Assembly: GCA_024277895.1 (NCBI GenBank)
Contig: JAJRUH010000037.1
Span: 1 to 38,704, forward strand
Length of the DNA: 38,704 bases
From: Bacteroidota bacterium
GTDB taxonomy: Bacteria > Bacteroidota > Bacteroidia > Bacteroidales > JAADGE01
Reading direction: 5' to 3'
The position numbers and the translations under genes are program-made. Positions within the stretch are counted from its first letter, which is position 1, and the number at the start of each line of letters is the position of its first letter. Shown one piece after another: positions 1-16,859 of this stretch. The notes below the pieces were generated by a model. That model was not told the DNA's origin, did not search any database, and worked only from the letters and a program-made list of their open reading frames with translations.

Positions 1-52
1 ATTGCTTGAAAAAATTGTTAATAACTTTTACAAAATTTGCTTGTTTTAATCA

Positions 53-287
53 TAGAATACTGAAAAGCTCACAGGTGCATTAGATTTCAAGTTTCTCGTT
101 TGAAGTCGTATATAAATACTACGAAATAAGAGAAATTTGACAGATGATGTGCCTGTGGGCAGCTAAAATATTTTACACAAGTGCAAGGAAATAGGGTAAA
201 ATGAATTAAAAACCTTGTATTTGCATATGTAAATATCCTTATAAGTAACTGAACTACAAATATATTAGCGTTTTTCAGCAAGCCCTA
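53..287. repeat. MITE-like repeat, copy 1 (left terminus decayed)
   Basis: About 235 bp, matching the element at 6610-6846 in the same orientation with roughly 13 substitutions counted by eye. The right end reads GTTTTTCAGCAAGCCC followed by TA. The left end (TAGAATACTGAAAAGCTC) is a decayed form of the intact TAGGGCTTGCTGAAAAAC terminus seen in copy 2. A 64-codon open frame on the minus strand is shared with copy 2, but many of the differences change amino acids, so I do not read it as a gene. The terminal inverted repeats, small size, flanking TA and lack of a transposase suggest a non-autonomous miniature transposable element. The family is not identified. Confidence 0.7.
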
Positions 288-303
288 TTTAAAAATAAAA
301 AAC

Positions 304-361
304 AGGTAAAAATACCTATATTTAAAATTTCAGTATTAAGAGTAAAAATACCGGTATTTTT
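304..361. promoter_or_regulatory. Operator-like direct repeats and palindrome upstream of the sensor kinase
   Basis: GTAAAAATACC occurs twice in direct orientation, at 306-316 and 342-352, exactly 36 bp apart. The second copy is half of a perfect 18-bp palindrome, AAAAATACCGGTATTTTT (344-361). The first copy is itself an interrupted dyad (AGGTA-AAAA-TACCT, 304-317). The array lies just upstream of a -7-like box (377-384), which suits a transcription-factor binding region. Alternatively, if transcribed, the two copies could compete for the same complementary arm. Confidence 0.35.
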
Positions 362-376
362 TTGCCTGTAAAATCA

Positions 377-384
377 TAACTTTG
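377..384 (+). promoter_or_regulatory. Possible Bacteroidetes -7 box for the sensor-kinase gene
   Basis: TAACTTTG matches the TAnnTTTG -7 consensus and lies 28 bp before the ATG at 412. No well-spaced TTG -33 element is visible: the nearby TTTG at 361-364 is only 12 bp away. The call rests on the -7 box alone. Confidence 0.3.
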
Positions 385-411
385 AATTTATTTAAATTTA
401 AATGATTTTTA

Positions 412-3400
412 ATGTCAAATCCTGTTAAAATACTTATTCTCGAAGATGTTACAAGCGATATTTTCTTACTTGAACACCGGCTTAATAAGTCAGATTTTAA
501 TTATAAAACAGAATCTGTCAAAACAAAATCTGATTTTATCAGCACATTAAAAAGTTTTGAACCCGATATCATCCTATCCGATTATCACTTACCGACATTC
601 TCAGGATTAGAAGCACTGGAAACAGTCAAAAATACCAACCCCGATACACCTTTTATTTTCGTTACAGGCGTATTAAATGAAAAAACAGCTGTAAAATTAC
701 TCAAAAAAGGCGCTTGGGATTATGTTTTAAAAGACAATTTAGTCCGTTTAGTTCCTGCAGTTGAAAACGCTCTTATATTAAAACACAAAAATGAAGAAGT
801 AAAAAAAACACAAAAATATCTGAAAGAAAGCAGAACTAAATATCTTGACTTATATGAAAATGCACCCGATATGTTTCTGACTTTTAATTTCAATACAGGT
901 ATTATCAGCGAATGCAATAATACATTAATTCAAAAAATCGGTTATAAAAAAACAGAAATAATCAATCATTCAATCAGTGAATTTTATTCATCCGATGATT
1001 TGCACAAATTAAAAAATAAATATCTCCAATATATTCTTAAAAATAAAGAAATAGAAAATGAGGAAATCTCAGTCAAAACAAAAAAAGGATATATTATATA
1101 CGGTACAATAAATTCAAAAGTTGATTTTTATACAACCGGATTTATAAAAAATATTCATATTACCATAAGAGATATTACCGAATTAAAAGAAAAAGATAAA
1201 GTGTTGAAAGAAAGTGAAAAACGGTTTAAAATGATTTTTGAAAAAACATCCGATTCCGTTCTTATTTTAGATGCCGAATTAAACCGAATTCCCATTCTTA
1301 AAGAAGCAAACTCTGCTGCAAAACAATACATTTTTGATTCAAAACAAACATATTTTAACAAACCGATAAGTATTTTACTCCCTCATATTCCCGAACAAGA
1401 AATAATCAAGGCGATTAATCAGATAAAAAACGGAGAAACATTTCGTGATAATATTACTTTAAATACGAAAAACTCCAAAACATTTTATTTTGATATAATA
1501 GCAAATCTCATATACCTGGAGAACAAAAAACACATTTTGATAACAGCACGAGATATTACAGAACAATATCTTGCAGAATTAAAATTAAACAAACAAAAAG
1601 AAACATTCAAATCTCTCTATAAAGAATACCTGAACCAAAATTTAGATTTAGAATACACTATTCAAAAATTACATAAAAGTCAAAAAGAACTTTCATCTAA
1701 AATAGACATTATTAACAGAAGTCCGGTTGTCAGTTTTTCGTGGAAAAATAAACCCGGTTGGCCGGTAAATTATGTATCAAAAAATGCGGAAAAAATATTC
1801 GGGTATTCTTCCGAAGAGTTCTTAAATAACAATATTTTATTTGAGAAAATTATACATCCCGAAGATTTATTACACGTAAAGCGGGAAATTGAAGAAGCTT
1901 CAGAGAAAAAAACAAATTATAAAATAACTCATAAATCATATCGTATCATTACAAAAAATAATACAATAAAATGGATAAAAGACGATACTATAATTATTCG
2001 AAAAAACGGCGAAATAATCAATTATGAAGGCATAATATCGGATATTACCGAAAATATTAAATATCAAAAGGCTTTAGAGGCAAGTGAACAAAAATATCGA
2101 TCAATGTTGGATGTTAATCCCGATATAGTAATAATTACTTCCGAAAATAAAAAAATTCAGTATATGAATCCGAAAGCAATTCAAAAATTCGGAAATTTTG
2201 ATAAAAAAACTTCTTGCCATAAATTCCTGTTTGATTTTGATACACCATGTTTTTGGTGTGCACAAAAGGAAGCAGATATATACGAAAACATTCAAAATGA
2301 GATTGTAATTCCCGATGACAGCAAACAATATTTGGTAACATTTTCCAAGATACAAGAAAATAGCGGAAAATCAACTTATATGACTTCTTATAAAGATGTA
2401 TCGGAATTACGACAATTACAAAATGAACGCTTGCAATTTTTTAATGCGTTGGAAGTTGGTCTGAATGAGGTTTATATGCTTGATCAAAATTTCGGTATTA
2501 AATACGTGAACTCGGTACCTGTACAAAATTTAGGTTTTTCAAAGTCGAAATTGCTCAAAATGAAATTATACAATTTTCAGACGGGGCAAAACAAAAAAAC
2601 ATACAAAAAATATTTTAATATACTGAAAAAAGGAAAAGAGAAAGAAGTTTATTTTGAAACTCGGCATAAACGTTTTGACGGAACATCGTATCCTGCATCT
2701 GTATATTTAAAATTGATAAAACAGAACTCTAAAATCGTTTTGTTAGCATTTGTCAATGATATTTCCGAAAAACAACAAAAAGATGAAATAATCAAACTGT
2801 TATCAACAGCAATTACACAAAGTCCTACAGAAGTTATTATTACTGATATTGACGGAAATATTAATTATGTGAATCCGAAATTTACAGAGATTACCGGGTA
2901 TTCGGCTTCTGAAGTTTTAGGAAAAAATCCTCGATTTATGAAATCGGGCAGGCAATCGGATGATTTTTATAAAGAAATGTGGAATACTGTTTCATCAGGC
3001 AAGGTTTGGAAAGGCGAATTTTACAATAAAAAGAAGAACGGTGAATTTTATTGGGAAAATACAATAATAAATCCCGTAAAAAATGAAACTGGTCATATTA
3101 CACACTATATTGCTCTGAAAGAAAATATTACAGAACAAAAACACATTCGTGAAAAACTGATTGCTTCCGAATTGCATTTTCGATTATTATTTGAAAACTC
3201 CTTAATCGGAATGTACCTGACCACTCCCGACGGCACAATTTTAGATGCCAATAAAGCACTGTGTAAAATGTTGGGGTACAATTCGCCGGAAGAATTAAAA
3301 AATATTAATATAGCACAAAATGATGAAATTATTGTAAACCGTAAAGAATTTGAAACAGAGATTAATAATAAAGGATTTGTTTACGGAATGGAAAGCATTT

Positions 3401-5031
3401 GGTCTGACAGGAACAATAAACTTATATATGTCAGAGAAAATGCCCGTAAATTTGTTGATAAAAACGGAGCCGTATTTTATGAGGGTACAGTAGAAAATAT
3501 TACAGACGTTAAATTAGCTGAAAGAAAATTAAAAGAAACTCACGAATTTAATAAACATATTATTAGGGTAGGTAATTTAGGCTATGCAATATATGAAACG
3601 AACGGAGATTGTATTGATGCAAATAAAACATTTGCTGAAATTTTTGAAACCAATGTGCCTGAATTATTAAAAGAAAATTTCAGAAAAAATAAAAACTGGG
3701 TAAAATATCAAATGATTGAAATTGCTGATAAATGTCTGAAATACGGCGAAAGAACAAAAAGAATATTCAATGGTAAAACGATATATAACAGAGATATCTG
3801 GATTGAATATAATTTCAGCAGAATATACAAAGGCAACAAACCGCAACTTCTGATTATAATACAGAATATTTCTTCTTATATGAAAGCTAAAAGAAGACAA
3901 ATACAAACTAAATCCGAGTACATTAATTTAATCGAAAGTGTAAATGTTCCGATTTTCGGGATTGATTCGAACGGAAAAATAAATCAATGGAATACGGCAA
4001 TTGAAAATTTAACCGGATATAATCGTCAAGAAATAAAAAGAAAAGATATAACGCGTATTTTTAAAACCGAAGGTGATTATGTTTTTCATGAATTTATTAA
4101 TAATGCTTTAAACGGATCAAAGATGTTAAACGAAGAATTAGATATAATCAGCAAAAAAGGCAAAACAATACGTTTATTATTAAGCAGTACTCTGCAAATT
4201 AATAATGATGACCATATCAGCGGAATAGTCTGCGTTGCTCAGGATATTACACAACGAGAAATTTATAAAGTGAATTTGGAAAAACAAATTGAAGAACGCA
4301 CACATAAATTAATTCAAGCTCTGAAAAAAGAAAAAGAATTGAGTGATTTAAAATCACAATTTGTATCTATGGCATCCCATGAATTCAGAACACCGCTCTC
4401 GGCAATTAAATTTGCCGCCGGTTTTATTAATAAATATTATGACAGAGCCGAAAAAAATAAAATACTGGAAAAAACTCGAAAAATAGATACTCAGGTAAAT
4501 CATATGACAAGTTTACTTGAAGATGTTTTAACAATCGGAAAAATTGAAAGCAAGAAATTAAAATTTGAACCTAAGCAATTATATCTTACGGAAGAATTAA
4601 AATTAATGATTGAAGATGTGTTAATCGCAACAAAAAAAACACATACAATTAATTTTACATTTAACGATCCGAAATGTCCGATAATTTCAGATGATAAAAT
4701 TCTCAGAAACATTTTTAATAACTTATTAACTAATGCCGTAAAATTTTCACCCGATGCAGATGAAGTAGTTCTTAGTTTAAATGCTGATGAAAAAAATGTA
4801 ATTTTGAAAGTCCTGGACAAAGGAATAGGTATTAAACCCGAAGAATTAAAAGATATTTTTAATCCGTTCAGGCGCGGACAAAATGTTGAAACTATTCAGG
4901 GAACCGGCTTGGGATTAGCCATTGTTAAAGAATCAATTGATTTATTAAAAGGCCGAATTTCGGTTAAAAGTAACATCGGTAAAGGAACTGAATTTACTGT
5001 AATTTTACCAAAACAGAAAATGATAAAATAA
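412..5031 (+). CDS. Soluble sensor histidine kinase: receiver, about 9 PAS, HisKA, HATPase
   Basis: A 1539-residue signalling kinase. The N-terminal receiver (about 1-125) has acidic residues E11/D12, phospho-acceptor D57 (SDYHLP), T85 and K107. By my reading nine PAS-like domains follow, at about 140-260, 267-385, 427-548, 561-668, 676-793, 794-913, 917-1043, 1044-1166 and 1168-1290, most ending in the D-I-T-E/Q type motif. The fourth carries C602-H603 and a C613-x-x-C616 cluster. A short coiled stretch leads to HisKA with H1323 in SHEFRTPL, then HATPase with N-box N1441, G1 box D1469-KGIG and G2 box GTGLGLAI near 1497. There is no signal peptide, transmembrane segment or HAMP domain, so it should sense cytoplasmic cues. 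It sits 20 bp before a CheY-like gene, inside the repeat-bracketed island. The ligands of the PAS domains are unknown. Confidence 0.93.
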   Translation: MSNPVKILILEDVTSDIFLLEHRLNKSDFNYKTESVKTKSDFISTLKSFEPDIILSDYHLPTFSGLEALETVKNTNPDTPFIFVTGVLNEKTAVKLLKKGAWDYVLKDNLVRLVPAVENALILKHKNEEVKKTQKYLKESRTKYLDLYENAPDMFLTFNFNTGIISECNNTLIQKIGYKKTEIINHSISEFYSSDDLHKLKNKYLQYILKNKEIENEEISVKTKKGYIIYGTINSKVDFYTTGFIKNIHITIRDITELKEKDKVLKESEKRFKMIFEKTSDSVLILDAELNRIPILKEANSAAKQYIFDSKQTYFNKPISILLPHIPEQEIIKAINQIKNGETFRDNITLNTKNSKTFYFDIIANLIYLENKKHILITARDITEQYLAELKLNKQKETFKSLYKEYLNQNLDLEYTIQKLHKSQKELSSKIDIINRSPVVSFSWKNKPGWPVNYVSKNAEKIFGYSSEEFLNNNILFEKIIHPEDLLHVKREIEEASEKKTNYKITHKSYRIITKNNTIKWIKDDTIIIRKNGEIINYEGIISDITENIKYQKALEASEQKYRSMLDVNPDIVIITSENKKIQYMNPKAIQKFGNFDKKTSCHKFLFDFDTPCFWCAQKEADIYENIQNEIVIPDDSKQYLVTFSKIQENSGKSTYMTSYKDVSELRQLQNERLQFFNALEVGLNEVYMLDQNFGIKYVNSVPVQNLGFSKSKLLKMKLYNFQTGQNKKTYKKYFNILKKGKEKEVYFETRHKRFDGTSYPASVYLKLIKQNSKIVLLAFVNDISEKQQKDEIIKLLSTAITQSPTEVIITDIDGNINYVNPKFTEITGYSASEVLGKNPRFMKSGRQSDDFYKEMWNTVSSGKVWKGEFYNKKKNGEFYWENTIINPVKNETGHITHYIALKENITEQKHIREKLIASELHFRLLFENSLIGMYLTTPDGTILDANKALCKMLGYNSPEELKNINIAQNDEIIVNRKEFETEINNKGFVYGMESIWSDRNNKLIYVRENARKFVDKNGAVFYEGTVENITDVKLAERKLKETHEFNKHIIRVGNLGYAIYETNGDCIDANKTFAEIFETNVPELLKENFRKNKNWVKYQMIEIADKCLKYGERTKRIFNGKTIYNRDIWIEYNFSRIYKGNKPQLLIIIQNISSYMKAKRRQIQTKSEYINLIESVNVPIFGIDSNGKINQWNTAIENLTGYNRQEIKRKDITRIFKTEGDYVFHEFINNALNGSKMLNEELDIISKKGKTIRLLLSSTLQINNDDHISGIVCVAQDITQREIYKVNLEKQIEERTHKLIQALKKEKELSDLKSQFVSMASHEFRTPLSAIKFAAGFINKYYDRAEKNKILEKTRKIDTQVNHMTSLLEDVLTIGKIESKKLKFEPKQLYLTEELKLMIEDVLIATKKTHTINFTFNDPKCPIISDDKILRNIFNNLLTNAVKFSPDADEVVLSLNADEKNVILKVLDKGIGIKPEELKDIFNPFRRGQNVETIQGTGLGLAIVKESIDLLKGRISVKSNIGKGTEFTVILPKQKMIK

Positions 5032-5051
5032 AATTATTAAAATAAAAAAAG

Positions 5052-5423
5052 ATGAAAAAAAAGATTTTAGTTGTAGAAGATACATCAGCTGTCCGAGAAG
5101 AAATTTGTGATATATTAAAAATGGAAGGTTTTAATGTATCGGAAGCCGTAAACGGAAAAGAAGGCTTAAGACTGGCTCAAACCGTTAAACCGAATTTAAT
5201 ACTTACAGATATTGTAATGCCTGAAATGAACGGGTTTGAATTATATGAAAATATTGCAAAAAATTCAAAAATACAAAATATTCCGATTATTTTTCTGTCT
5301 GCCAATGCAGATAAAGATGCTTTGGAACGGGCAAAAAAAATGGGAACCGGTGAATACATCGTTAAACCGGTAAGTCCTGATATTTTAATTAAAACAATAA
5401 CAAACAGAATCAATAAACATTAA
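5052..5423 (+). CDS. CheY-like single-domain response regulator
   Basis: A 123-residue protein consisting only of a receiver domain. It has the acidic pair E9/D10, phospho-acceptor D53 in LTDIVMPEMNGF, S83 at the switch Ser/Thr position and K105 in the VKP motif, so the fold and phosphorylation site look intact. It has no output domain, so it would act by protein contact or as a phosphate shuttle or sink. It lies between the large kinase (20-bp gap) and the LuxR-type regulator (14-bp gap), most likely in one transcript. No Hpt domain is encoded nearby, so a full kinase-receiver-Hpt-receiver relay would need a partner elsewhere. Confidence 0.92.
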   Translation: MKKKILVVEDTSAVREEICDILKMEGFNVSEAVNGKEGLRLAQTVKPNLILTDIVMPEMNGFELYENIAKNSKIQNIPIIFLSANADKDALERAKKMGTGEYIVKPVSPDILIKTITNRINKH

Positions 5424-5437
5424 ATAACATTGTCATT

Positions 5438-6535
5438 ATGTCTAAAAAAAAGATTTTAGTAATCGATGATTTTGCACCGCTGCTTGAAGAAGTTACAGAT
5501 TTCTTAACTTTTGAAGGCTTTAAAACTTTTTCGGCGAAGGACGGAACCGAAGGTATTCAAATGGCTCTTCAATGTAAACCGGATTTGATAATTTGTGATA
5601 TTGAAATGCCTAAAATGAACGGTTTTGAAGTATATAAAACACTTGAAAAGATTCCGGCTGTCAATTCAACTCCTTTTATTTTTTTAACAGCAAGAGCACA
5701 AGCTGAAGATTTTAAAAGCGGCTTAAAATTAGGTGCAGATGACTACATTACCAAACCGTTGGAAATGGATTATCTCTTGGCAAGTATTTTAAAACGTTTA
5801 GATAAAATAGAACGCATCGAAAACAAATATCGTAAAGAATTTGAAATTCTTTTACACAATCCGTTAATCGGAATTTTTATTTATAAAGCAAATCAATTTT
5901 ATCTTATTAATAATAAATTTCGAGATATCATAGGTTATTCAAAAAAAGAACTCAATAATCTTAAATTATCAGACATCATAATAAGCGATTCGGAAATCTT
6001 ATTACGAAAATTAAAATCAGTTTCTGACAATATTCACGATTCGGTTCAGGTTAAAATCTCAATTATTAAAAAAAATAAAAAAGCGGTAATTATTGAATTA
6101 TTTGTTAAATATATAGAATCAAAAAATGAAAAAGGACTGATAGGATCTGTAATTGAACTCTCATCGGAAAAATCCGGTTCTGTATCAAATTCTGATAATT
6201 CTTCAGTTACAGAATTCGAAAAAATTGTAGATTTCCTGAATTCTTCCGGAAAAGGAGAAATTGCCGATGAAATTATTAATGTAAAAGAAATTGTATCTTT
6301 CAATTCAGATTCAAAAAAACAAAAACTTCAAAAAAAAATTAAACTGACTAAAAGAGAAACAGAAATTTTGCAATTAATTTGTGAAGGCTATACAAATGTT
6401 GAAATTGCCGTAAAACTTTTTATCAGTAATCGTACAGTTGATAATCACCGAGCAAATCTGTTATCAAAAACACATACTAAAAATACGGCTTCTCTGGTTG
6501 CTTTTGCCGTTCAAAACAGGATTGTTGAAATATAA
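5438..6535 (+). CDS. Response regulator with receiver, PAS-like and LuxR-type HTH domains
   Basis: 365 residues. The receiver (about 1-125) has D10/D11, phospho-acceptor D54 in ICDIEMPKMNGF, T-A-R at the switch position and K-P in DDYITKPLE. A PAS-like middle (about 135-225) contains FRDIIGYSKKEL. After a charged, low-complexity linker comes a C-terminal LuxR/NarL-type helix-turn-helix (about 300-362) with LTKRETEILQLICEG and SNRTVDNH. The usual NarL class is about 210 residues, so the extra length is the PAS insertion, which could make DNA binding depend on a second signal. It is the only DNA-binding gene of the island and the natural output for the kinase. It could also be autoregulatory at the dyads upstream of the kinase. 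Confidence 0.9.
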   Translation: MSKKKILVIDDFAPLLEEVTDFLTFEGFKTFSAKDGTEGIQMALQCKPDLIICDIEMPKMNGFEVYKTLEKIPAVNSTPFIFLTARAQAEDFKSGLKLGADDYITKPLEMDYLLASILKRLDKIERIENKYRKEFEILLHNPLIGIFIYKANQFYLINNKFRDIIGYSKKELNNLKLSDIIISDSEILLRKLKSVSDNIHDSVQVKISIIKKNKKAVIIELFVKYIESKNEKGLIGSVIELSSEKSGSVSNSDNSSVTEFEKIVDFLNSSGKGEIADEIINVKEIVSFNSDSKKQKLQKKIKLTKRETEILQLICEGYTNVEIAVKLFISNRTVDNHRANLLSKTHTKNTASLVAFAVQNRIVEI

Positions 6536-6609
6536 TTTCAGTGATTTGACAGAAAACTTTTTTACTGTATTTTGGAAGTGAAAACTTTTTTCTTTGAATT
6601 TCAATTGTT

Positions 6610-6846
6610 TAGGGCTTGCTGAAAAACTCACAGGTGCATTAGATTTCAAGTTTCTCGTTTGAAGTCGTATATAAATACTGTGAAATAAGAGAAATTTGAA
6701 AGATGGTGTGCCTGTGGGCAGCTAAAATAGTTTACACAAGTGCAGGGAAATAGGGTGAAATGAATTAAAAACCTTGCACTTGCATATGCAAATAACCTTA
6801 TAAGTAACTGAAACACAAATATATTAGCGTTTTTCAGCAAGCCCTA
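6610..6846. repeat. MITE-like repeat, copy 2 (intact terminal inverted repeats)
   Basis: About 237 bp with matching ends: TAGGGCTTGCTGAAAAAC on the left and its exact reverse complement on the right, giving 18-bp inverted repeats if the flanking TA is counted. The TA at both ends could be a 2-bp target duplication. Internal dyads include TTGCATATGCAA (6780-6791) and TGCC-tgtg-GGCA (6709-6720). It is about 94% identical by eye to copy 1 at 53-287. The right end abuts the 3' end of the PorE/SPOR gene, and its last bases form part of that reading frame's TAG stop. No transposase is encoded. This element fills the 308-bp stretch between the LuxR regulator and the next gene. Confidence 0.75.
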
Positions 6847-7224
6847 CTTATACCATTCTAATTCTCTGATAAATGCATCTTTGAAACCCATTTTATGAAC
6901 TGTTACTAAATATTTTTCAGCATCGGATTTATATTTGTATTTTCCGTATGTATAGTGATATAAAACATCATTTCCGTTTCTGATTTTCACCTTTCCTCTG
7001 AAATCTTTAAAAAAGCGATCAGTATTCGGTAATTTCCTTCTGAATGCACCAAGTTGAATTGTGTAAATACCTTTAAAACCGCCGTTATCTAAATCACCGG
7101 CATTTGTGTTATTATTTGCTACAACATTGTTAAATGCGTTCTTGGCACTTTCGCTGTCCAATACCGTTACTAATATATCTTCTTTATTTGAATTATAATC
7201 TGTTAAATCAACAAATATTCTGTT
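6844..7224 (-). pseudogene. Downstream fragment of the PorE-like gene: end of OmpA region plus SPOR-like domain
   Basis: This stretch is in the same frame as the PorE-like gene (7225-8970) and separated from it only by the TAA at 7225-7227. It would add about 126 residues. The first part completes the OmpA-like region (NRIFVDLTD), followed by a short linker. The last about 75 residues look like a SPOR domain: the opening YTIQLGAFRRKL and the late GFKDAFIRELEW segments are typical. SPOR domains bind denuded peptidoglycan glycan. It could restart only at a TTG at 7161, without a ribosome-binding site or signal peptide. The frame ends in a TAG formed at the junction with repeat copy 2. It is probably untranslated unless the stop is read through or the reference base is wrong. 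Confidence 0.6.
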
Positions 7225-8970
7225 TTAGGAAATATCCTGAGAATTTAAAAAATTGATTATTTCTTGTTTTCTTTTTTTTGCAAGATTTTCATCAATATCT
7301 TTCGACGAATATAAATTTATTACCAAATCAGGATTTTTATTTAAGAAACGTGCTAATGTATTCAAAAATAAATCATTTTCATTATTCAAATCCTTACTGT
7401 TCTTGTCAAAATTCATAGAATAAATTTTATGAATCTTCCCTTTTTCAATTTTTTGTAAGCTATATGACCCTAAATTTTTTGTCTGATTATCATCGTACGG
7501 TGCTGAAAAAGTAAATGCTTCAAAGTAATGATTATCAGACTCTAATGCAACAAAATAATTACGATCTCTTTTCACATTAAAAGAAAAATCTCCCGAAAGA
7601 TTTGCCGGCGTATTATAAATAGTATTTTTATTCATTATATCTGCAACTCTCACATTACATAATGTTTGATTCGTGTTGGTAACATTTCCTTTTACGGTTA
7701 AAAAATATAAAGAAGAATCGGCATAATTAACTTTATAAATGTCCCCTCGCCCTTTTCCCTCAGGTCTTTTTGACATAAAATAAGCAATTTTATTATTATT
7801 TGTTACAAAGTAAAATAAATCATCTTCAACAGAATTTATGGGCATACCCAAATTCACGGGTTTTGAAAATTTCCCGGGTCCCCCCCTGCCTTCGGCACTA
7901 AAAATATCATATCCTCCGATAGAATTATGTCCTTTCGAAGAAAAATATAATATCCCGTCTGCATGAATAAACGGACTTTCTTCATCAAACTTTGTATTAA
8001 TTTTTCGTCCGAGATTTTTAGGTTCAGACCATTTATCGCCTGTTTTTTTTATATAATAAATATCTTTTCCTCCTCTGCCGCCGGGTCGGTCACTTGAAAA
8101 ATAACACAATGTTCTGTCTTGATTCATTGAGGCATGTGTTTCGTTATATTTTGAATCTACAGGCTTAAATTTGGTTGGTTTTGTCCAGTTATTACCTTTA
8201 AATTCACTTTGATATATATCACCGTCTTTATATAATAACATATAAGTTCCGTCTTTCGACACCCAACAATCCGCTTCATTATTTTTAGAATTCAACGGTT
8301 TGGAATACGGATCGGGTTCCCTGTCATTTTCATTATTAAGATTAATAAAAAATATGTTTTCATCATACTCGCCGTCAGCAGTTTTATTATCTCTGAAATT
8401 TGTTTTTTCTTTAGATGTGTAGATAAAAATCCCTTTATCTTCGATATAAAACGGAGAATGTTGTGTCATTTCAGTATTAATACCCGGCCCCGGAGATACA
8501 ACTTTTAATAATTTTTTCTTTTTAAATTCTTTTTTTGCTGCTTCACAAGCTCGAATTTCATTTTTTAAAATATCCGCAGATTTATATTTTTTATATTCCT
8601 TATTGATAATAAGTTCATTAAATACTTGAATTGCTTCGTCAAACAAATAATTTACATGATATGCTTCTCCCAATAAGAATTTGGCATTAATAAAATCTTC
8701 ATTTTTATGTTTTGTTTCAAAAATTCGAACTGCTTTTTGCAAAACCGGAATTGCCATACCTTGAATTTGAGGTGTTCTTAAATAACATTCGCCTAAATTC
8801 ATATGATATTCACCTTTCTCCGGATATTTTTCAACCAATTTTTCATACGCTTTTATTGCTTCCGGAATATTTCCCGACAATAATAATTTTTTAGCTTTTT
8901 TAGCACTTTGAGAAAATACTACTGTTGATGAAACTATCACTATTACAGCAAGCAGGAAAACTTTTTTCAT
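7225..8970 (-). CDS. PorE-like envelope protein (TPR, PD40 propeller, CarboxypepD_reg, truncated OmpA)
   Basis: 581 residues with an N-terminal signal peptide (MKKVFLLAVIVIVSSTVVFSQ; no lipobox). Domains in order are TPR-like helices (about 22-150), PD40/WD40-like blades (about 170-410, with FSSDRPGGRGGKDIYY and YFSSKGHNSIGGYDIF), a CarboxypepD_reg-like beta domain (about 425-510), and the start of an OmpA-like peptidoglycan-binding domain (about 540-581). This order is that of PorE, the type IX secretion component proposed to anchor the machinery to peptidoglycan. The related proteins I know finish the OmpA domain, whereas this one stops at TAA within it and the same frame continues for another 126 codons. 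Its start faces the lipoprotein gene at 9213 across a 242-bp divergent gap. It may be a recent nonsense pseudogene. It could also be one of several PorE paralogues rather than the dedicated secretion component. Confidence 0.8.
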   Translation of the reverse strand: MKKVFLLAVIVIVSSTVVFSQSAKKAKKLLLSGNIPEAIKAYEKLVEKYPEKGEYHMNLGECYLRTPQIQGMAIPVLQKAVRIFETKHKNEDFINAKFLLGEAYHVNYLFDEAIQVFNELIINKEYKKYKSADILKNEIRACEAAKKEFKKKKLLKVVSPGPGINTEMTQHSPFYIEDKGIFIYTSKEKTNFRDNKTADGEYDENIFFINLNNENDREPDPYSKPLNSKNNEADCWVSKDGTYMLLYKDGDIYQSEFKGNNWTKPTKFKPVDSKYNETHASMNQDRTLCYFSSDRPGGRGGKDIYYIKKTGDKWSEPKNLGRKINTKFDEESPFIHADGILYFSSKGHNSIGGYDIFSAEGRGGPGKFSKPVNLGMPINSVEDDLFYFVTNNNKIAYFMSKRPEGKGRGDIYKVNYADSSLYFLTVKGNVTNTNQTLCNVRVADIMNKNTIYNTPANLSGDFSFNVKRDRNYFVALESDNHYFEAFTFSAPYDDNQTKNLGSYSLQKIEKGKIHKIYSMNFDKNSKDLNNENDLFLNTLARFLNKNPDLVINLYSSKDIDENLAKKRKQEIINFLNSQDIS

Positions 8971-9176
8971 ATCTGTATTATTTTTTTCATTAAATGAAGC
9001 AACAATCGTGCAAAAATGAAATAATAAATATAATTATTAAATCAGATTCACTATATATTGCAAAAATATTGATTACTTTATTAAATAGTTAATTTTTTTT
9101 ATGAGTTGCATATTTTATAATGTTGATAAACTGAAAAAGTATATATAAAAATCAATTCTTTAAATATTATTTTTTA

Positions 9177-9184
9177 TAATTTTG
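9177..9184 (+). promoter_or_regulatory. Possible -7 box for the lipoprotein gene
   Basis: TAATTTTG fits the TAnnTTTG consensus 28 bp before the ATG at 9213. No convincing -33 TTG is visible. The rest of the divergent intergenic region (8971-9212) is AT-rich. It also contains CAAAAATA at 9061-9068, a possible minus-strand -7 box for the PorE-like gene. Confidence 0.35.
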
Positions 9185-9212
9185 TAAACTCAATAAATTT
9201 AAATTTTCAATT

Positions 9213-9767
9213 ATGAAATTCAAATATCTTTTCTTCATTTCAGTATTATTTATTTCTGCCGTATCTTGCAAGCAAAAATCAACCGACCAAATAAAAAACA
9301 ACACTGTGCATGATATTAATCTTGAAAAGCTGAATGCACCGCAATCTGCAGTAAAAGTTGCAGACAGTATTATGTATATTACAAATGTAAAAAATCCTGA
9401 TTCTGCATCTGCATACTATATGAATCAATGGTTGTCAGGAGTTAAAACTCAAGATTTAGCTAATAAAATTTTTCAGGCAGTTTACGATAAAAGATTAAAA
9501 GCTTATAATTATATTACCGGAAAAGAGATGAGTATTAAAGAAGTAAAAGAACTTGAAAATGAATTCAGCAGAAAGGATATCGGTCAAATTTTATTTACGG
9601 AAGATTGGTATTTTGACGAAAAAAAATTAAAAATGTACAAACAGGTCAATTCAATTATGCTTGCATATTTCAGATATGACGATGACGGAAATTTATTGGG
9701 GAATAAAGCGGGTATCCGGGTTTATCTGAACGGAACAAAACCAATGCGAGGAGCACAAGACTATTAA
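9213..9767 (+). CDS. Small lipoprotein, weakly GldN/PorN-like
   Basis: 184 residues with a lipoprotein signal: a hydrophobic stretch followed by SAVSC, giving lipidated Cys19, so it should be anchored in the outer or inner membrane facing the periplasm. I do not recognise the family with confidence. The segment ILFTEDWYFDEKK followed by a short beta-rich tail resembles the WYFDK...GICP region of GldN/PorN, which forms the type IX secretion ring with PorK. However, the protein is much shorter than GldN and the rest does not match clearly. It lies beside a PorE-like gene and upstream of PorV-like and PorD genes, which makes a secretion-related role possible but unproven. The dehydrogenase gene follows after 20 bp. 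Confidence 0.75.
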   Translation: MKFKYLFFISVLFISAVSCKQKSTDQIKNNTVHDINLEKLNAPQSAVKVADSIMYITNVKNPDSASAYYMNQWLSGVKTQDLANKIFQAVYDKRLKAYNYITGKEMSIKEVKELENEFSRKDIGQILFTEDWYFDEKKLKMYKQVNSIMLAYFRYDDDGNLLGNKAGIRVYLNGTKPMRGAQDY

Positions 9768-9787
9768 ATTACTTTTATCCGTTCAGA

Positions 9788-10732
9788 ATGTTCAAAATTC
9801 TTACAGCAGAACCGACACATAAAATTTTACAAGAAAGTTTAGAAAATGCCGAATTTATTTGCGAATATCTTCCGAAACTTTCATTTACGGAACTTAAAAG
9901 TATCATTCCGGAATATGACGGACTGGTAATCAGAAGTAAATTTAAAATTGACAAAGATTTTATTGATACCGCAAAAAAATTAAAATTTATAGCACGTGCA
10001 GGTGCCGGAATGGAAAATATTGATACCGGTTATGCGGAAAGTAAAGGTATAAAATGTATAAATTCTCCGGAAGGGAACAGAGATTCAGTAGGCGAACATG
10101 CACTGGGAATGTTACTGACTTTATTTCACAAAATAAATATTGCCGATAAAGAAATACGCAGAGGAATATGGAACAGGCAATATATCGGAACGGAAATTCA
10201 AGGTAAAACAATAGGTATCATCGGATACGGAAATATGGGCAGTGCATTTGCACAAAAGCTTAAAGGTTTTTCCGTAAACGTAATTGCTTACGATAAATAC
10301 AAAACCGGATTCTCCGATGATTTTGTTAAAGAAGTGAGTTTGAAAACTTTATTTTCGAAAACTGATATTTTCAGTATTCACATACCTCTGACAGATGAAA
10401 CTCATTTTTTGATTAACAATGAGTTCCTCAAAAAATTTCAAAAACCAATATACATTATTAATACAGCAAGAGGAAAAGTCCTCAAAACAGATGATTTGGT
10501 AAAAAATATGAAATCCGGAAAAATTCTCGGTGCTTGTTTAGATGTTTCAGAATATGAAAAAACTTCGTTTACCGATATTTTTGCCGGAAAAAATTCTGCT
10601 TCTCTTCAATATCTCATTAATTCCGACAAAGTAATTATGACACCGCATATTGCCGGCAGTTCAGAAAACTCGTATAAAAAAATCGCAGGAGTTTTGGCAG
10701 AAAAAATTATTCATAATTTTAAATTACAGTAA
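9788..10732 (+). CDS. D-2-hydroxyacid dehydrogenase, probably phosphoglycerate dehydrogenase (SerA-like)
   Basis: 314 residues, NAD-dependent D-isomer-specific 2-hydroxyacid dehydrogenase family. The Rossmann dinucleotide loop GYGNMG is at 146-151, followed by an acidic residue (AYDK) expected to select NAD over NADP. The substrate loop RAGAGMENID, the INTARGKVL segment with catalytic Arg, and MTPHIAGSSENS with catalytic His are all present. The length matches the short SerA class without ACT or ASB regulatory domains. The likely reaction is oxidation of 3-phosphoglycerate to 3-phosphohydroxypyruvate, the first step of serine synthesis. No serC or serB is nearby, so another 2-hydroxyacid substrate is possible. 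It may be cotranscribed with the lipoprotein gene upstream, and it converges on pssA. Confidence 0.88.
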   Translation: MFKILTAEPTHKILQESLENAEFICEYLPKLSFTELKSIIPEYDGLVIRSKFKIDKDFIDTAKKLKFIARAGAGMENIDTGYAESKGIKCINSPEGNRDSVGEHALGMLLTLFHKINIADKEIRRGIWNRQYIGTEIQGKTIGIIGYGNMGSAFAQKLKGFSVNVIAYDKYKTGFSDDFVKEVSLKTLFSKTDIFSIHIPLTDETHFLINNEFLKKFQKPIYIINTARGKVLKTDDLVKNMKSGKILGACLDVSEYEKTSFTDIFAGKNSASLQYLINSDKVIMTPHIAGSSENSYKKIAGVLAEKIIHNFKLQ

Positions 10733-10764
10733 TTCTTATTATCTTAAAAACAACTTTCTTAAAT

Positions 10765-11592
10765 TCAAACTTTCTCTTTTAAAAAATGATTAACAATATC
10801 AATTCCTGCCGAAAACAAAATATACAGTATAATAATAATCGGTATTATAAAACATTGAATAAATACAAACAATAATACAGCTAAAATCAAGAATATATAT
10901 TTTCCTGAATTTTGCATAAAAGAATAATTCTCAAGTTTAAAAGAAAACATCGGAATTTCAATAAGCTGCAGTACAGCAAATACAAAAATTGAAACAACGT
11001 AAAACCAAAAATTAGTCAAAAGATAAACCTGTACGCCTATTACTGCAAGAATAAAATCAAAAGGCATATTAACATCCAACCAAGTTTTTAAAATTAACAA
11101 ATTATCAGGGTCAAAAGCGTTTACCAAAGGTAAAGAAGCAAAAAATATTGCCGAAACAGGAACCGGCATACCCAAAAAATGGTGAGTTTGACGACTGTCA
11201 ACATTAAATTTTGCCAAACGCAAAGCAGCTGCGATAATCAAAACTATCGGAGACAATAAAATCAAAACCTGCACATAAGGCAAATCAATTGAAAATGCTT
11301 TAACCTCCAAAGCTGCTTTTAACATCAGAAAAATAACTGCTGCAGGTGCAATTCCGAAACTTACAAGATCAGCTAAAGAATCAAGTTGTTTACCTATTTT
11401 CGATTGTCTGTTTAATAATCTGGCAACAAATCCGTCAATAAAATCAAAAAATACTGCAACAAATATTAATATAGCGGCATATGTCAGTTTACCGGGATGT
11501 TCAAAAGCATAAAAAATTGCCGTACTTCCGGCAACCAAATTTAATAAAGTTAATACATTCGGCAAGCTAAAATATCTTAATTGTTTGTCCAT
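10765..11592 (-). CDS. pssA: CDP-diacylglycerol-serine O-phosphatidyltransferase
   Basis: 275-residue integral membrane enzyme of the CDP-alcohol phosphatidyltransferase family. The full signature D-x2-DG-x2-AR-x8-G-x3-D-x3-D is present: D50, D53, G54, A57, R58, G67, D71 and D75. These residues bind the metals and the CDP moiety. Several hydrophobic helices follow, including a long hydrophobic C-terminal tail. The length and opening (RYFSLPNVLTLLNLVAG) fit the Bacteroidetes/Bacillus-type phosphatidylserine synthase, which makes the precursor of phosphatidylethanolamine. No phosphatidylserine decarboxylase gene is adjacent in this window. Its start faces the PorV-like gene across 88 bp, and its end converges on the dehydrogenase gene with a 32-bp gap and no obvious hairpin. 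Confidence 0.87.
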   Translation of the reverse strand: MDKQLRYFSLPNVLTLLNLVAGSTAIFYAFEHPGKLTYAAILIFVAVFFDFIDGFVARLLNRQSKIGKQLDSLADLVSFGIAPAAVIFLMLKAALEVKAFSIDLPYVQVLILLSPIVLIIAAALRLAKFNVDSRQTHHFLGMPVPVSAIFFASLPLVNAFDPDNLLILKTWLDVNMPFDFILAVIGVQVYLLTNFWFYVVSIFVFAVLQLIEIPMFSFKLENYSFMQNSGKYIFLILAVLLFVFIQCFIIPIIIILYILFSAGIDIVNHFLKEKV

Positions 11593-11680
11593 AATTATTT
11601 TTTACTTTATGCAATAAGTATTCACTTTTGCAGTTTAAAATTAAATTAATCTTTGGTAAAAATATCTTAAATTTTGTAAA

Positions 11681-12772
11681 ATGCCAAAAATAATAAGTTT
11701 GATTTTTATTATTTCCTGTTTTTTTGTTAATTCATACGGACAAATTCGCATATACAGTAATGAATTTCTGAGTATAGGCATAGGAGCAAAAGCTTTAGCC
11801 ATGTCAAATGCCGTTGTCGCTTCTTCGAATGATGTTTATTCCGGTTTTTGGAATCCGGCAGGATTAAATTTTATTGAAAACAAATATGAAATTGCCGCTA
11901 TGCACTCAGAATATTTTGCAGGCATCGCCAAATTCGATTATCTCGGAACCGCATACAAAATCGGAGATTCATCAGTAATTGCCGGCAGTTTGATCCGATT
12001 CGGTATTGATAATATTCCCAACACATTAGAGTTAATTGACGAAAACGGAAATATTGACTACAATCGTATTTCTTATTTTTCAACGGCAGATTGGGCTTTT
12101 TTGCTTTCATACGCAAAAAAAAGTTTAATACCCGGATTATCATACGGCATAAATGCAAAAATTATTTTCAGAAATCAAGGCGAATTTGCCAAAGCATTTG
12201 GTTTCGGATTTGATATCGGACTAAAATACGTCAAGAAAAAATGGTTGTTCGGAGCAAATTTAAAAGATGCTACTTCAACCTTTAATGCCTGGTTTTATAA
12301 TACAGATAAGTTGAAAGAAGTTTTCATCCGTACCGGAAACGAAATTCCTGCAAACAGTTTAGAAATAACAATGCCGGAACTTATTACAGGAGTAAGCAGA
12401 AATTTCAAACTTTCCGAAAAATTCAGTTTAAGTCCCGAAATTGATATAGATGTCAGTTTTGACGGGAAAAAATACGTCATTATAAGTTCAAAAGCAGTAA
12501 GTATTGACCCGTATTTCGGAACAGAATTAAATTTTAAAAATATTATTTTCTTCAGAACAGGAGTAGGAAATTTTGCTCAAATACCTGATTTTGACAAGAA
12601 AACACTTAATTTCCAACCGAGCATCGGCTTAGGAATCAATATTTTAAACTTCAAATTAGATTACGCATTAACAGACATCGGCAATCAATCCGTTGCTTTA
12701 TATTCAAATGTTTTTTCATTAAGCTATGGTTTTAATAAATTAAATTTAAAAAAACAAATACATAACAGGTAA
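11681..12772 (+). CDS. PorV/PorQ-like outer-membrane beta-barrel protein
   Basis: 363 residues with a signal peptide (cleavage near NSYGQ, about residue 20). The N-terminal part has the pattern of the PorV/PorQ and UPF0164 branch of FadL-like barrels: LSIGIGAKALAMSNAVVAS followed by NDVYSGFWNPAGL. The rest alternates beta strands and ends in an aromatic-rich strand (SLSYGF), as expected of an outer-membrane barrel. PorV binds type IX secretion substrates and helps sortase attachment, and related PorV2/PorQ proteins are common in Bacteroidetes. The exact subgroup cannot be decided here. It stands 85 bp before bamD, the assembly factor such barrels need. Confidence 0.78.
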   Translation: MPKIISLIFIISCFFVNSYGQIRIYSNEFLSIGIGAKALAMSNAVVASSNDVYSGFWNPAGLNFIENKYEIAAMHSEYFAGIAKFDYLGTAYKIGDSSVIAGSLIRFGIDNIPNTLELIDENGNIDYNRISYFSTADWAFLLSYAKKSLIPGLSYGINAKIIFRNQGEFAKAFGFGFDIGLKYVKKKWLFGANLKDATSTFNAWFYNTDKLKEVFIRTGNEIPANSLEITMPELITGVSRNFKLSEKFSLSPEIDIDVSFDGKKYVIISSKAVSIDPYFGTELNFKNIIFFRTGVGNFAQIPDFDKKTLNFQPSIGLGINILNFKLDYALTDIGNQSVALYSNVFSLSYGFNKLNLKKQIHNR

Positions 12773-12844
12773 CTTTTTAAAACCTTTTATCGTTAAAGCA
12801 TAAAAAGAAAATACAAAAAAGATTTCTCTTTAAGAATAAAATAT

Positions 12845-12852
12845 TAATTTTG
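12845..12852 (+). promoter_or_regulatory. Possible -7 box for the bamD operon
   Basis: TAATTTTG, a TAnnTTTG match, is only 5 bp from the bamD ATG (12858). If used, transcription would start at or very near the start codon, giving a leaderless or nearly leaderless mRNA. No TTG -33 is evident. Confidence 0.33.
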
Positions 12853-12857
12853 CAGCC

Positions 12858-13682
12858 ATGTTTAAAAAAATAACTTTTCTCATATCAATCATATTATCAA
12901 TAAGTTTTCTGAATTCTTGCGAATTTAATACAGCAAAAAAAATTCAGGATCCGGAAAAAAAATATATAAAAGCCGCCGAATATTACAAAACCGGCAAATA
13001 TGCCAAAACACAAATTTTACTTGAAGATGTTATTCTTTCTTTAAGAATGACAAAAAGCGGTGAAGATGCTTTATACAAATATGCTGATTCATATTATCAT
13101 ATGAAAGATTATATTCTTGCAGGATATTATTTCAGAAAATATACAACCGACTACCCAAAAGGAAAACACGCTGAAGAGGCACAATTTATGAGTGCAAAAT
13201 GCTATTATTTAGATGCTCCGAAATCAACATTAGACCAACAAGCAACATATACAGCCTTAAAAGAATTTGAACTTTTTATAACAAAATATCCTGACAGTAA
13301 ACGTATTGAAGATTGTAATAATCTGATTGACGAATTAAGAGCTCGCTTAGAAAAAAAATCTTATAATAATGCAAAATTATATTTTGATATAGGATACTAT
13401 AATGCTGCATCCATTGCTTTAAAAAACAGTATGACAGATTATCCGGATACAAAATACAAAGAAGATATCATATATCTTATTGCTAAATCAAAATATAAAT
13501 ATGCCCAAAACAGTATAATTATTAAACAAAAAGAACGCTATGAAGATGCTCTGAAATCTTTAAACGAATATACAGAAAAATATCCTTCGGGAAAATATTT
13601 AAAAGTGCTTAATTCAATTAAAAAAAATATTAAAAAAGAGCTGTCAAAATTACAAAAAAACCAAACGGCAAGTATTAATTAA
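12858..13682 (+). CDS. bamD: Outer-membrane assembly lipoprotein BamD
   Basis: 274 residues with a lipoprotein signal ending in LNSC (lipidated Cys21). The mature part is built of TPR-type helical pairs: KYIKAAEYYKTGKYAKT, then ALYKYADSYYHMKDYILAGYYFRKY with TDYPKGKHAEEA, then FITKYPDSKR and LNEYTEKYPSGKY. This is the BamD/ComL (outer membrane assembly lipoprotein YfiO) pattern at normal length. BamD partners with BamA to fold and insert outer-membrane barrels. In Bacteroidetes the gene is typically followed by the omega-subunit gene and coaBC, as here, which supports the call. It starts a run of closely spaced genes reaching at least to porD. Confidence 0.87.
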   Translation: MFKKITFLISIILSISFLNSCEFNTAKKIQDPEKKYIKAAEYYKTGKYAKTQILLEDVILSLRMTKSGEDALYKYADSYYHMKDYILAGYYFRKYTTDYPKGKHAEEAQFMSAKCYYLDAPKSTLDQQATYTALKEFELFITKYPDSKRIEDCNNLIDELRARLEKKSYNNAKLYFDIGYYNAASIALKNSMTDYPDTKYKEDIIYLIAKSKYKYAQNSIIIKQKERYEDALKSLNEYTEKYPSGKYLKVLNSIKKNIKKELSKLQKNQTASIN

Positions 13683-13699
13683 AAAGCAATTCACAGATT

Positions 13700-14032
13700 A
13701 TGGACTATAAAAAAACAAATGCATCCGATACAACAATAACAAGAGATTTTACGGATTTAGAAAAAAATACAGGAAACATCTATAAATCAGTTGCAATCAC
13801 TGCAAAACGTTCTAATCAAATTCAAAAAGAAATTAAAGAAGAATTAAATAAAAAATTAGAAGAATTTGCCTCTTACACTGATAATTTAGAAGAAATTTTT
13901 GAAAACAGAGAACAAATTGAAATTTCAAAATTTTACGAACGTCTTCCGAAACCGACTTTAATTGCTTTAGAAGAACTTCTTGAAGATAAAATCTATTTCA
14001 GAGACCCGGAAGAAGACGAAGAAATCAAATAA
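13700..14032 (+). CDS. rpoZ: RNA polymerase omega subunit, Bacteroidetes type
   Basis: 110 residues, soluble, with many charged residues and an acidic tail (RDPEEDEEIK). The segment NIYKSVAITAKRSNQI matches the conserved omega/Rpb6 helix that contacts the C-terminal part of beta prime, and the position between bamD and coaBC is typical for this phylum. Omega helps assemble and stabilise RNA polymerase. The gaps are 17 bp to bamD and 12 bp to coaBC, so it should be cotranscribed with both. Divergence from the proteobacterial omega is large, so the assignment leans on the short motif and gene order. Confidence 0.75.
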   Translation: MDYKKTNASDTTITRDFTDLEKNTGNIYKSVAITAKRSNQIQKEIKEELNKKLEEFASYTDNLEEIFENREQIEISKFYERLPKPTLIALEELLEDKIYFRDPEEDEEIK

Positions 14033-14044
14033 AACTTCCTTAAA

Positions 14045-15250
14045 ATGAACGGGAAAAAAATAATTGTCGGAATAACCGGCGGAATTGCAGCGTACAAAGC
14101 TGCAATTCTTATAAGATTATTGATAAAAAAGGGTGCCGAAGTTCAAGTTTTAATAACACCTTTTGCCGAAAAATTTATTACTCCCCTCACCCTTTCAACA
14201 TTATCACAAAAACCGGTTTTAAAAATGTTCTGTAATCCCGAAACCGGCGATTGGAACAGCCATGTAGATTTAGGATTATGGGCAGATGCTTTTATAATAG
14301 CTCCCGCAACAGCAAATACAATAGGCAAGGCTGCTAACGGTATTGCCGACAACCTTCTTCTTACAAGTTATTTATCTGCAAAATGCCCGATATTTTGGGC
14401 TCCGGCAATGGATTTGGATATGTTCAGGCATCCTGTCGTTCAAAGTAACATCAAAAAATTAAAATCTTTCGGTAATCATATTATTGATGCAGAAACAGGG
14501 GAACTCGCAAGTGGTTTGGAAGGAAAAGGCAGAATGGCAGAACCGGAAAATATCGTAAAATTTTTAGAAAAATATTTTACCGAAAAAAAAAAACTTCAAG
14601 GATATAAAACACTAATTACACTCGGACCGACTTATGAAAATATTGATCCCGTAAGATATATCGGTAACCGTTCAAGCGGTAAAATGGGTTTTGCACTTGC
14701 AGATGTTTTTGCTGACAGCGGAGCAAAAGTTACGGTAATAGCAGGTCCCGTGAATATAAAACCGTTAAATAAAAACATTAATGTAATAACCGTTCAAAAT
14801 GCGGAAGAAATGCTTGAACAAACAAAAAAGTATTTCTCAAAAAACAATATAATCATTTTCGCAGCAGCAGTTGCCGACTACACACCGGCAAATCCCGAAG
14901 ATTTAAAAATAAAAAAACAAACAAAAACACTCTCAATTAAACTAAAACCCACAAAAGATATTGCAAAAGAAACAAGCATCTTAAAAACCAAAAATCAAAT
15001 CACTGTCGGCTTCGCCTTAGAAACTGATAATGAGGTAATTAATGCAGAGAAAAAGATACAGAAAAAAAAATTTGATTTTATTGTGCTAAATTCTTTAAAC
15101 GACACAGGTGCCGGTTTCGGATACGATACCAATAAAATTTCTATCATTGATAAATACAATAATATCGAAAATTTTGAGTTAAAATCAAAAACTGAAGTTG
15201 CACAAGACATCTTACAAAAAGTAAGCAACCTCTTAAATATCGATAAATAA
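14045..15250 (+). CDS. coaBC: Bifunctional phosphopantothenoylcysteine decarboxylase / phosphopantothenate-cysteine ligase
   Basis: 401 residues; catalyses two steps of coenzyme A synthesis. The N-terminal FMN-dependent CoaC domain (about 1-180) has GITGGIAAYK, catalytic His73 (NSHVDLGLW) and APATANTIGKAANGIADNLL. The C-terminal CoaB ligase domain (about 190-400) has TLGPTYENIDPVRYIGNRSS, followed by GKMG and the AAAVADYTP loop. Two CoaC positions differ from E. coli: PAMD (Asp123) replaces the PAMN Asn, and ELASG has Ser156 where E. coli has the active-site Cys. I recall this pair as common in Bacteroidetes, so it is probably a lineage variant rather than a defect. It sits 12 bp after rpoZ and 11 bp before porD. 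Confidence 0.93.
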   Translation: MNGKKIIVGITGGIAAYKAAILIRLLIKKGAEVQVLITPFAEKFITPLTLSTLSQKPVLKMFCNPETGDWNSHVDLGLWADAFIIAPATANTIGKAANGIADNLLLTSYLSAKCPIFWAPAMDLDMFRHPVVQSNIKKLKSFGNHIIDAETGELASGLEGKGRMAEPENIVKFLEKYFTEKKKLQGYKTLITLGPTYENIDPVRYIGNRSSGKMGFALADVFADSGAKVTVIAGPVNIKPLNKNINVITVQNAEEMLEQTKKYFSKNNIIIFAAAVADYTPANPEDLKIKKQTKTLSIKLKPTKDIAKETSILKTKNQITVGFALETDNEVINAEKKIQKKKFDFIVLNSLNDTGAGFGYDTNKISIIDKYNNIENFELKSKTEVAQDILQKVSNLLNIDK

Positions 15251-15261
15251 TTTCTTTATCC

Positions 15262-16173: not shown

Positions 16174-16206
16174 ATCTGAAATTCATTCTGAATTCATTTT
16201 TTTTTT

Positions 16207-16214
16207 TAATTTTG
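16207..16214 (+). promoter_or_regulatory. Possible -7 box for udk
   Basis: TAATTTTG follows a long T-run, 28 bp before the udk ATG (16243), in the 69-bp gap after porD. It matches TAnnTTTG. No TTG -33 is visible, so the support is partial. Confidence 0.35.
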
Positions 16215-16242
16215 AATATCGATAAATCTATAATTATTTAAG

Positions 16243-16857: not shown

Positions 16858-16859
16858 AA

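What the first reader, a model, noticed from the sequence alone, without database searches (positions are those of the whole stretch)
53..6846. Signalling island bracketed by two direct copies of a MITE-like repeat
Seen: two about 235-bp repeats in the same orientation flank exactly three signalling genes and nothing else; the right copy has perfect 18-bp inverted ends with TA on both sides, the left copy has lost its left end. Inference: the genes may have been gained or rearranged with the repeats, or homologous recombination between the copies could delete the about 6.56-kb unit, leaving one repeat. That would make the sensory system an on/off accessory trait within the population.
Basis: partly seen in the sequence, partly recalled or inferred. 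Interest (0 to 1): 0.6.

Follow-up and report, generated by a model that had tools for sequence, protein, structure and literature searches.

The report
RNA-guided insertion into a MITE end
The two repeats beside these sensor genes belong to a very common small mobile element; the left one looks broken only because a second mobile element, whose likely guide RNA spells out that repeat's end, has inserted there, and the genes themselves look like ordinary inherited neighbours, not an acquired switchable island.

Summary
The repeats are real: two direct copies, 94% alike, of a MITE-like element flanked by TA. Its 15-nt end occurs 183 times (up to one mismatch) in the 3.19-Mb genome against 0 for the control pattern. 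The 'island' reading fails: the kinase-receiver-LuxR trio stands in the same order in five other species of the genus (cut by a contig end in one), and the closest one, G012, has no match to the MITE.

Left copy: its 'lost end' is a junction with an IS110-type element; window 1-59 is that element's right end. In this genome 15 of 15 left ends found read TAGGGCTTG|IS and 8 of 8 right ends found read IS|CTGAAAA plus MITE. The IS leader holds a bridge-RNA-like target loop with AGGGCTTGCT and TTTCAG, the two halves of the MITE end. Over this and seven sister elements, guides fit their own flanks better than each other's.

Right copy: it joins segments that lie on separate G012 contigs; their G012 neighbours begin in MITEs elsewhere in this genome. 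MITE-MITE crossover or misassembly: undecided. Nothing supports on/off excision.

IS110 elements targeting other mobile elements' ends are known; I found no report with a MITE end.

The parts
1..59 (+). Right end of an IS110-type insertion sequence: 1-9 = last two codons and stop of its transposase, 10-59 = non-coding right end; the rest of the element lies beyond the contig edge
   Evidence: all 59 nt identical at C11, C24, C55, C81, C89, and the 48 and 18 nt available at C62 and C156; C81 continues it upstream into 70 aa of an IS110-type transposase C-terminus
60..285 (+). Left MITE copy (subfamily A), outer 7 nt of its left end replaced by the IS110 insertion at GGGCTTG^CTGAAAA; TA at 286-287
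412..5031 (+). Hybrid histidine kinase: receiver, many PAS, HisKA, HATPase, 1539 aa
   Evidence: 92% identical relative in G012
5052..5423 (+). Single-domain response regulator, 123 aa
5438..6535 (+). Receiver-PAS-GerE (LuxR-type) response regulator, 365 aa
6612..6844 (+). Right MITE copy, intact, subfamily A, flanked by TA (6610-6611, 6845-6846); sits at a synteny break with G012
6844..8970 (-). PorE-like TPR/PD40/SPOR gene with an in-frame TAA at 7225-7227 (581 + 105-aa ORFs in one frame); its terminal stop codon overlaps the MITE/TA junction

Best explanation
Two layers of mobile DNA lie on an ordinary inherited signalling locus. (1) A MITE family (subfamily A about 233 bp, B about 242 bp without the TAs, plus variants) has spread by insertion at TA; one copy landed upstream of the kinase, another just after the LuxR regulator, another at the stop codon of the PorE-like gene. 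(2) An IS110-type element with a bridge-RNA-like leader, whose target loop reads the two halves of the MITE end (AGGGCTTGCT, and TTTCAG = complement of CTGAAA), inserts into MITE ends between GGGCTTG and CTGAAAA; one such insertion replaced the outer end of the left MITE and, being repetitive, ended the contig there. (3) The right MITE now joins LuxR to PorE because the MITEs at the LuxR and PorE sites recombined (or were misjoined in assembly). Shown: copy number, junctions, the guide match, sister elements with other guides, empty sites in a relative. Inferred: the order of events; that the leader is transcribed and guides recombination as in IS621; that the right junction is biological.
For: IS110 layer: 15 of 15 left-end junctions found read TAGGGCTTG|CCTTTAG and 8 of 8 right-end junctions found read ATAGAATA|CTGAAAA followed by MITE A or B (both searches scored at most 40 candidates, so these are lower bounds). 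The leader between left end and ATG carries AGGGCTTGCT and, downstream, TTTCAG between the arms of one stem, plus ATAGAAT and TAAAGG, which match the element's own right end and the complement of its left end. In 8 elements (own + 7) guides fit their own flanks: mean 13.75 of 17 positions against 7.05 for mismatched pairs; 2 of 40,320 permutations reach it; 1 of 200,000 random targets scores as well against the own guide as the MITE end does. 11 of 24 predicted pairs of the leader alignment, 10 of them in the target loop, have changes on both sides that keep the pair. Full-length sisters carry PF01548 and PF02371. Genome layer: window 297-6545 and 6845-18919 are collinear with two different G012 contigs, the alignments ending 10, 65 and 1 nt from the MITE/TA units; the G012 neighbours of LuxR and PorE lie in this genome at C107 and C86, both starting in a MITE; C72, which ends in the IS left end, carries the sequence directly upstream of the kinase in G012.
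Against: No full IS110 copy was seen in this genome (PF01548 search of the own genome: 0); only its ends are seen, and the 70-aa own fragment alone hits no Pfam model. RNA expression is not shown; the own leader folds only modestly better than shuffles (z -1.98, 10 of 200 shuffles as good), and the donor-loop stem that I read by eye is not in the consensus fold. The G013 left guide fits 6 of 9, and only in the second register; right guides of L236 (5 of 8) and L244 (4 of 8) are weaker; four of the eight share nearly one left target. Left junctions read CC where the target has CT. For the right MITE, a 91-nt stretch is identical between C13 and C86, so a misjoin is possible.
Confidence: 0.85

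Rival explanations
1. Signalling island that can be switched off by recombination between the two direct repeats.
For: Two direct copies, 94% identical over about 230 bp, start-to-start 6559; the kinase is patchy between species (6 of 14 genus genomes, own included, at E 1e-60).
Against: The trio is conserved in order in five other species, four without a MITE match; the left repeat is a clean insertion between the kinase and its G012 neighbour; MITE ends are very common (183), so two near each other are not surprising; no deletion form was seen, though none could be looked for.
Confidence: 0.06
2. The right-hand junction LuxR-MITE-PorE is an assembly misjoin; in the cell LuxR-MITE-C107 and PorE-MITE-C86 are both simple insertions.
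For: C107 and C86 begin inside MITEs; 91 nt are identical between C13 and C86 and 47 nt between C13 and C107; both G012 sites can be read as plain MITE insertions at a TA. Misassembly at repeats is documented for Porphyromonas gingivalis in PMC5771137 (passages).
Against: Of 14 in-contig MITEs with both flanks mapped on G012, 10 are clean empty sites, so the assembler mostly resolved them; two A/B chimeric MITEs (C55, C107) share only about 15 identical nt at the switch, hard to create by k-mer joining, so MITE-MITE recombination probably happens in this genome.
Confidence: 0.4
3. The left copy simply decayed or was deleted at its outer end, without a second element.
For: None beyond the missing 7 nt.
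Against: The same break with the same adjoining DNA (59 nt at five places, the 48 and 18 nt available at two more) recurs at seven other places, and that DNA is the end of an IS110-type transposase gene.
Confidence: 0.01
4. The IS110 transposase or local DNA features choose the MITE end; the guide-like match in the leader is coincidence.
For: No expression or functional test; predicted fold of the own leader is weak (z -1.98).
Against: 1 of 200,000 random targets scores as well; the guide differs between sister elements in step with their flanks while the stem and donor guides are kept.
Confidence: 0.04

Closest known systems
IS621 and other IS110 elements with bridge RNA (PMC11208160; passages)
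   Same: Left-end non-coding region with a target loop whose left and right guides both include the core dinucleotide, and a donor loop that reads the element's own ends; insertion into a dispersed repeat
   Different: IS621 goes to REP sequences; here the target is the end of a MITE; left junction reads CC where the target has CT; transcription untested
IS1383 in the inverted repeats of IS1384 (cited title seen in the reference list of PMC11208160)
   Same: Element specific for the ends of another mobile element
   Different: Target is an IS in Pseudomonas putida, not a MITE; original paper not read
IS4321 / IS5075 in Tn21-family terminal repeats (cited title seen)
   Same: Same logic: the target is the terminal repeat of another transposon
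   Different: IS1111 members with subterminal inverted repeats; original paper not read
ISPye46 of Paracoccus yeei (PMC11578231; passages)
   Same: IS110 element that the authors suggest may insert preferentially into other ISs
   Different: Target ISs of the IS256/IS5 families; no guide read out in the passages seen
MITECca01 of Cardinium, about 240 bp, from an IS982 element (PMC9769881; passages)
   Same: MITE of similar size with many copies in a member of the same phylum (phylum recalled)
   Different: Parent IS identified there; no parent found here; end sequences not compared

Membership tests
MITE | Short, no transposase, terminal inverted repeats | tested here: met
   233 bp between the TAs, too short for a transposase, 16-nt perfect ends
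MITE | Target-site duplication | tested here: met
   TA on both sides in 47 of 60 paired elements; G012 empty sites carry a TA at the insertion point
MITE | Many dispersed copies, inserted into otherwise contiguous sites | tested here: met
   183 end matches, 60 paired elements in the stretches held, 10 clean empty sites among 14 with both flanks mapped; the G012 stretches held (1.40 Mb) have 0 exact, 1 one-mismatch and 10 two-mismatch ends
MITE | Parental autonomous element with the same ends | tested here: inconclusive
   DDE_Tnp_1 search of own genome: 0; other transposase families not searched for this; end pattern 0 in viral contigs
IS110 family | DEDD domain PF01548 plus PF02371 | tested here: inconclusive
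   Own copy: only 70 aa of the C-terminus and the first codons seen, no Pfam hit, own PF01548 search 0, probably because the middle is unassembled; sisters L236 (64%) and G013 (67%, ORF split in two) hit both domains
IS110 family | Long non-coding left end with a two-loop RNA, guides for target and donor | tested here: met
   (sequence and covariation for the target loop; donor loop by sequence match only)
IS110 family | Site-specific insertion at a core dinucleotide matched by the guides | tested here: met
   15 of 15 left and 8 of 8 right junctions found; CC at the left junction departs from the CT of the target
IS110 family | Bridge RNA transcribed and bound by the recombinase | not testable with these tools
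   needs RNA data
Composite transposon / mobile island | Genes between two repeats absent from the orthologous site in relatives | tested here: not met
   G012 holds the trio, contiguous with the same upstream DNA, without the repeats

The most novel reading that the evidence does not exclude
A two-tier parasite system reshapes this genome: a bridge-RNA element is programmed for the terminal repeat of a resident MITE family, which gives it about 180 safe landing sites and cripples each MITE that it enters, while recombination among MITEs and IS110-loaded MITEs moves gene blocks; the guide would then evolve to follow the MITE.
Probability: 0.2. Interest if true: 0.65.

Novelty: new member of a known kind. 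Interest (0 to 1): 0.45.

Why it matters
It shows how a natural IS110 guide can be read from draft-genome contig ends and checked against many insertions: 23 junctions found, one target, one guide. The elements compared here, with several different guides and targets, are a natural data set on how bridge RNAs are reprogrammed, and a transposon end as target would let such an element spread without harming genes. It also warns that a repeat-bracketed 'island' at a contig edge can be an assembly and nesting effect.

Tried and rejected
Rejected: acquired or switchable island; decay of the left end; a known RNA family (Rfam: none in window 1-9000; in five IS loci only two below-threshold group II intron hits, both in L087); plasmid copies of the MITE (none); the exact 18-nt MITE end in viral contigs (none); a DDE_Tnp_1 parent (none). 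An apparent A/B chimera at C126 proved to be an A fragment beside a whole B element, so I do not use it as a crossover. The list of mixed types is mostly subfamily-A elements read on the reverse strand; by eye only C55 and C107 are chimeras. MITE secondary structure: strong folds (z -9.0 and -7.9), but both-sided changes in only 4 of 52 pairs between subfamilies A and B; too few independent events to claim RNA function.

Dropped rows: I used 8 elements; L243 (degenerate right end, contig end) and L245/L246 (divergent loop, right end not located) had loops but were left out, as were the other loci (L237, L240, L247-L255) and the other IS110 loci, in which no such loop was read. In one search, of 60 paired elements (two of them overlapping calls at C67) 27 had some flank hit; 16 had hits on both sides, and I set aside two whose left hit was a short repeat (C67:17596) or a 70% paralog (C72:4959). 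Of the 14 left, 10 are clean (C12:9090 with an indel of about 190 nt) and 4 lie on different G012 contigs: C13; C126; C100, with a 76% right flank; C150, whose hits lie near G012 contig ends and may be only a contig break.

Papers: PMC11208160, PMC11187229, PMC9769881, PMC11578231 and PMC5771137 were seen as found passages; others as search listings. That an IS110 in a MITE end is not in print was looked for only, in open-licence papers (12 of the 20 papers were listed).

Full report
What the window is. The window is one whole contig, C13, of a 183-contig, 3.19-Mb genome (G000). It carries genes that look like type IX secretion or gliding genes (PorE-like domains; a GldN hit just under Pfam's cut-off). 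The 20 IS relatives fetched from named records are from Bacteroidota (titles; the phylum of some genera recalled); the organism itself is not named by any search.

The observation. Both repeats are present in the same orientation, 94% identical. The right copy, 6612-6844, has perfect 16-nt inverted ends and TA on each side; the left copy, 60-285, lacks its outer 7 nt. Between them lie the kinase, the single receiver and the LuxR-type regulator. The repeat belongs to a MITE-like family: 41 matches, partial ones included, to the 241-nt query (which scored 40 candidates), 183 end matches with at most one mismatch against 0 for the control, and 60 paired elements in the stretches I held, 47 of them with TA on both sides. 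By halves they are subfamily A (30), subfamily B (21) and 9 partial, nested or mixed. Of 40 genomes in the relatives search (own included; at most 19 candidates scored in each), only G000 and G001 have full copies of subfamily A, and G004 one weak match.

Why the left copy looks broken. The DNA before it also occurs at seven other places, joined to a MITE end at the same point: all 59 nt at five, the 48 and 18 nt available at two. At C81 the sequence continues upstream into 70 aa that match IS110-type transposases (67% in G013; 47-72% in 20 loci). Window 1-9 is the end of that gene. Searching for the half-end followed by anything but G (18 matches) unexpectedly gave four contig ends with AGGGCTTGCT inside a non-coding leader, just before an ATG where the contig reaches that far: the left end of the same IS. 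A search with this leader gave 17 matches, of which 15 have the exact left end; all 15 are preceded by TAGGGCTTG. So the IS lies between GGGCTTG and CTGAAAA of a MITE end, in either end of the MITE (C24 is in the opposite end) and in both subfamilies.

The guide. Within the leader, a stem AGAATGGGG/CCCCATTCT encloses AGGGCTTGCT and, further on, TTTCAG; a second loop has ATAGAAT and TAAAGG, which match the IS's own right end and the complement of its left end. This is the layout described for the IS621 bridge RNA, where each guide includes the core dinucleotide (PMC11208160, passages). The sister element in G013 has the same ends and donor guides but a different target loop and different flanks. 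Over 8 elements, guides fit their own flanks (13.75 of 17 on average against 7.05 off-diagonal; 2 of 40,320 permutations); four of the eight share nearly one left target, so the right guides carry most of the independent weight (5.9 of 8 against 2.5). Pairs are kept by changes on both sides in 11 of 24 predicted pairs, 10 of them in the target loop. Against: G013, L236 and L244 fit less well, the own fold is only weakly better than shuffles, the donor-loop stem is not in the consensus fold, and there is no RNA evidence. The domain test passes for full-length sisters, not for the own 70-aa fragment.

Why it is not an island. The kinase search at E 1e-60 over 26 genomes (own included) found 7 with a match, 6 of them in the genus. 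The trio stands in the same order in G012, G001, G005, G008 and, cut by a contig end, G013. In G012, G005 and G008 the LuxR gene is followed by the same two genes; in G001 these lie on the other side of the kinase. In G012, which has no match to the MITE, the sequence directly upstream of the kinase is the one that in G000 stands at the end of C72 against the IS left end. So the left MITE plus IS is an insertion at the ancestral place.

The right copy. Window 297-6545 matches G012 C38 and window 6845-18919 matches G012 C42; the blastn alignments end 65 nt before and at the right MITE/TA unit, and by eye the 65 nt still resemble the G012 site. In G012, LuxR is followed by DNA that in G000 lies at C107, which begins in a MITE; PorE is followed by DNA that in G000 lies at C86, which begins in a MITE. 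Both G012 sites can be read as plain MITE insertions at TA, the second at the PorE stop codon. Hence either two MITEs recombined or the assembler joined the wrong halves; C13 and C86 share 91 identical nt. Of 14 MITEs with both flanks mapped on 1.40 Mb of G012, 10 are clean empty sites and 4 lie on different contigs, one of them weak and one explicable by contig ends. Two A/B chimeric MITEs (C55, C107) argue that MITE recombination does occur. I put real recombination at about 0.6.

Known or new. Elements of this kind that enter the ends of other mobile elements are known by title (IS1383 in IS1384; IS4321/IS5075 in Tn21-family ends; reference list), and bridge/seeker RNAs are published (PMC11208160, PMC11187229; passages). 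I found no report of a MITE end as the guide-encoded target in the searches named, which cover open-licence papers only. I file it as a new member of a known kind.

Noticed in passing
window 7225-7227: In-frame TAA splits the PorE-like gene into 581 and 105 aa. Of 12 other genus genomes with a match at 60% identity or more, 11 have an open frame of 708-756 aa and one (G007) is split between contigs.
   Followed up: partly
L035 about 40-150; L042 about 190-290; L044 from about 550; C42:24067-24382: A second dispersed inverted repeat (CGCAAGTCATCGTATCA ... TGATACGATGACT) sits inside or beside several MITEs.
   Followed up: no
L038 72-309 (C55) and L040 1-163 (C107): MITEs that are one subfamily on the left and the other on the right, switching in the right hairpin arm.
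   Followed up: partly
L087 775-1085: Below-threshold group II intron matches beside the G013 sister IS110.
   Followed up: no
L084 7461-14094 (G001): The trio lies on the other side of, and inverted relative to, its usual downstream neighbours in G001.
   Followed up: no
L239, L241, L242, L243, L244: A sister IS110 sub-clade whose left target is AACGTTTTG (AACGTTTGG in L244); the identity of that repeated target was not pursued.
   Followed up: no
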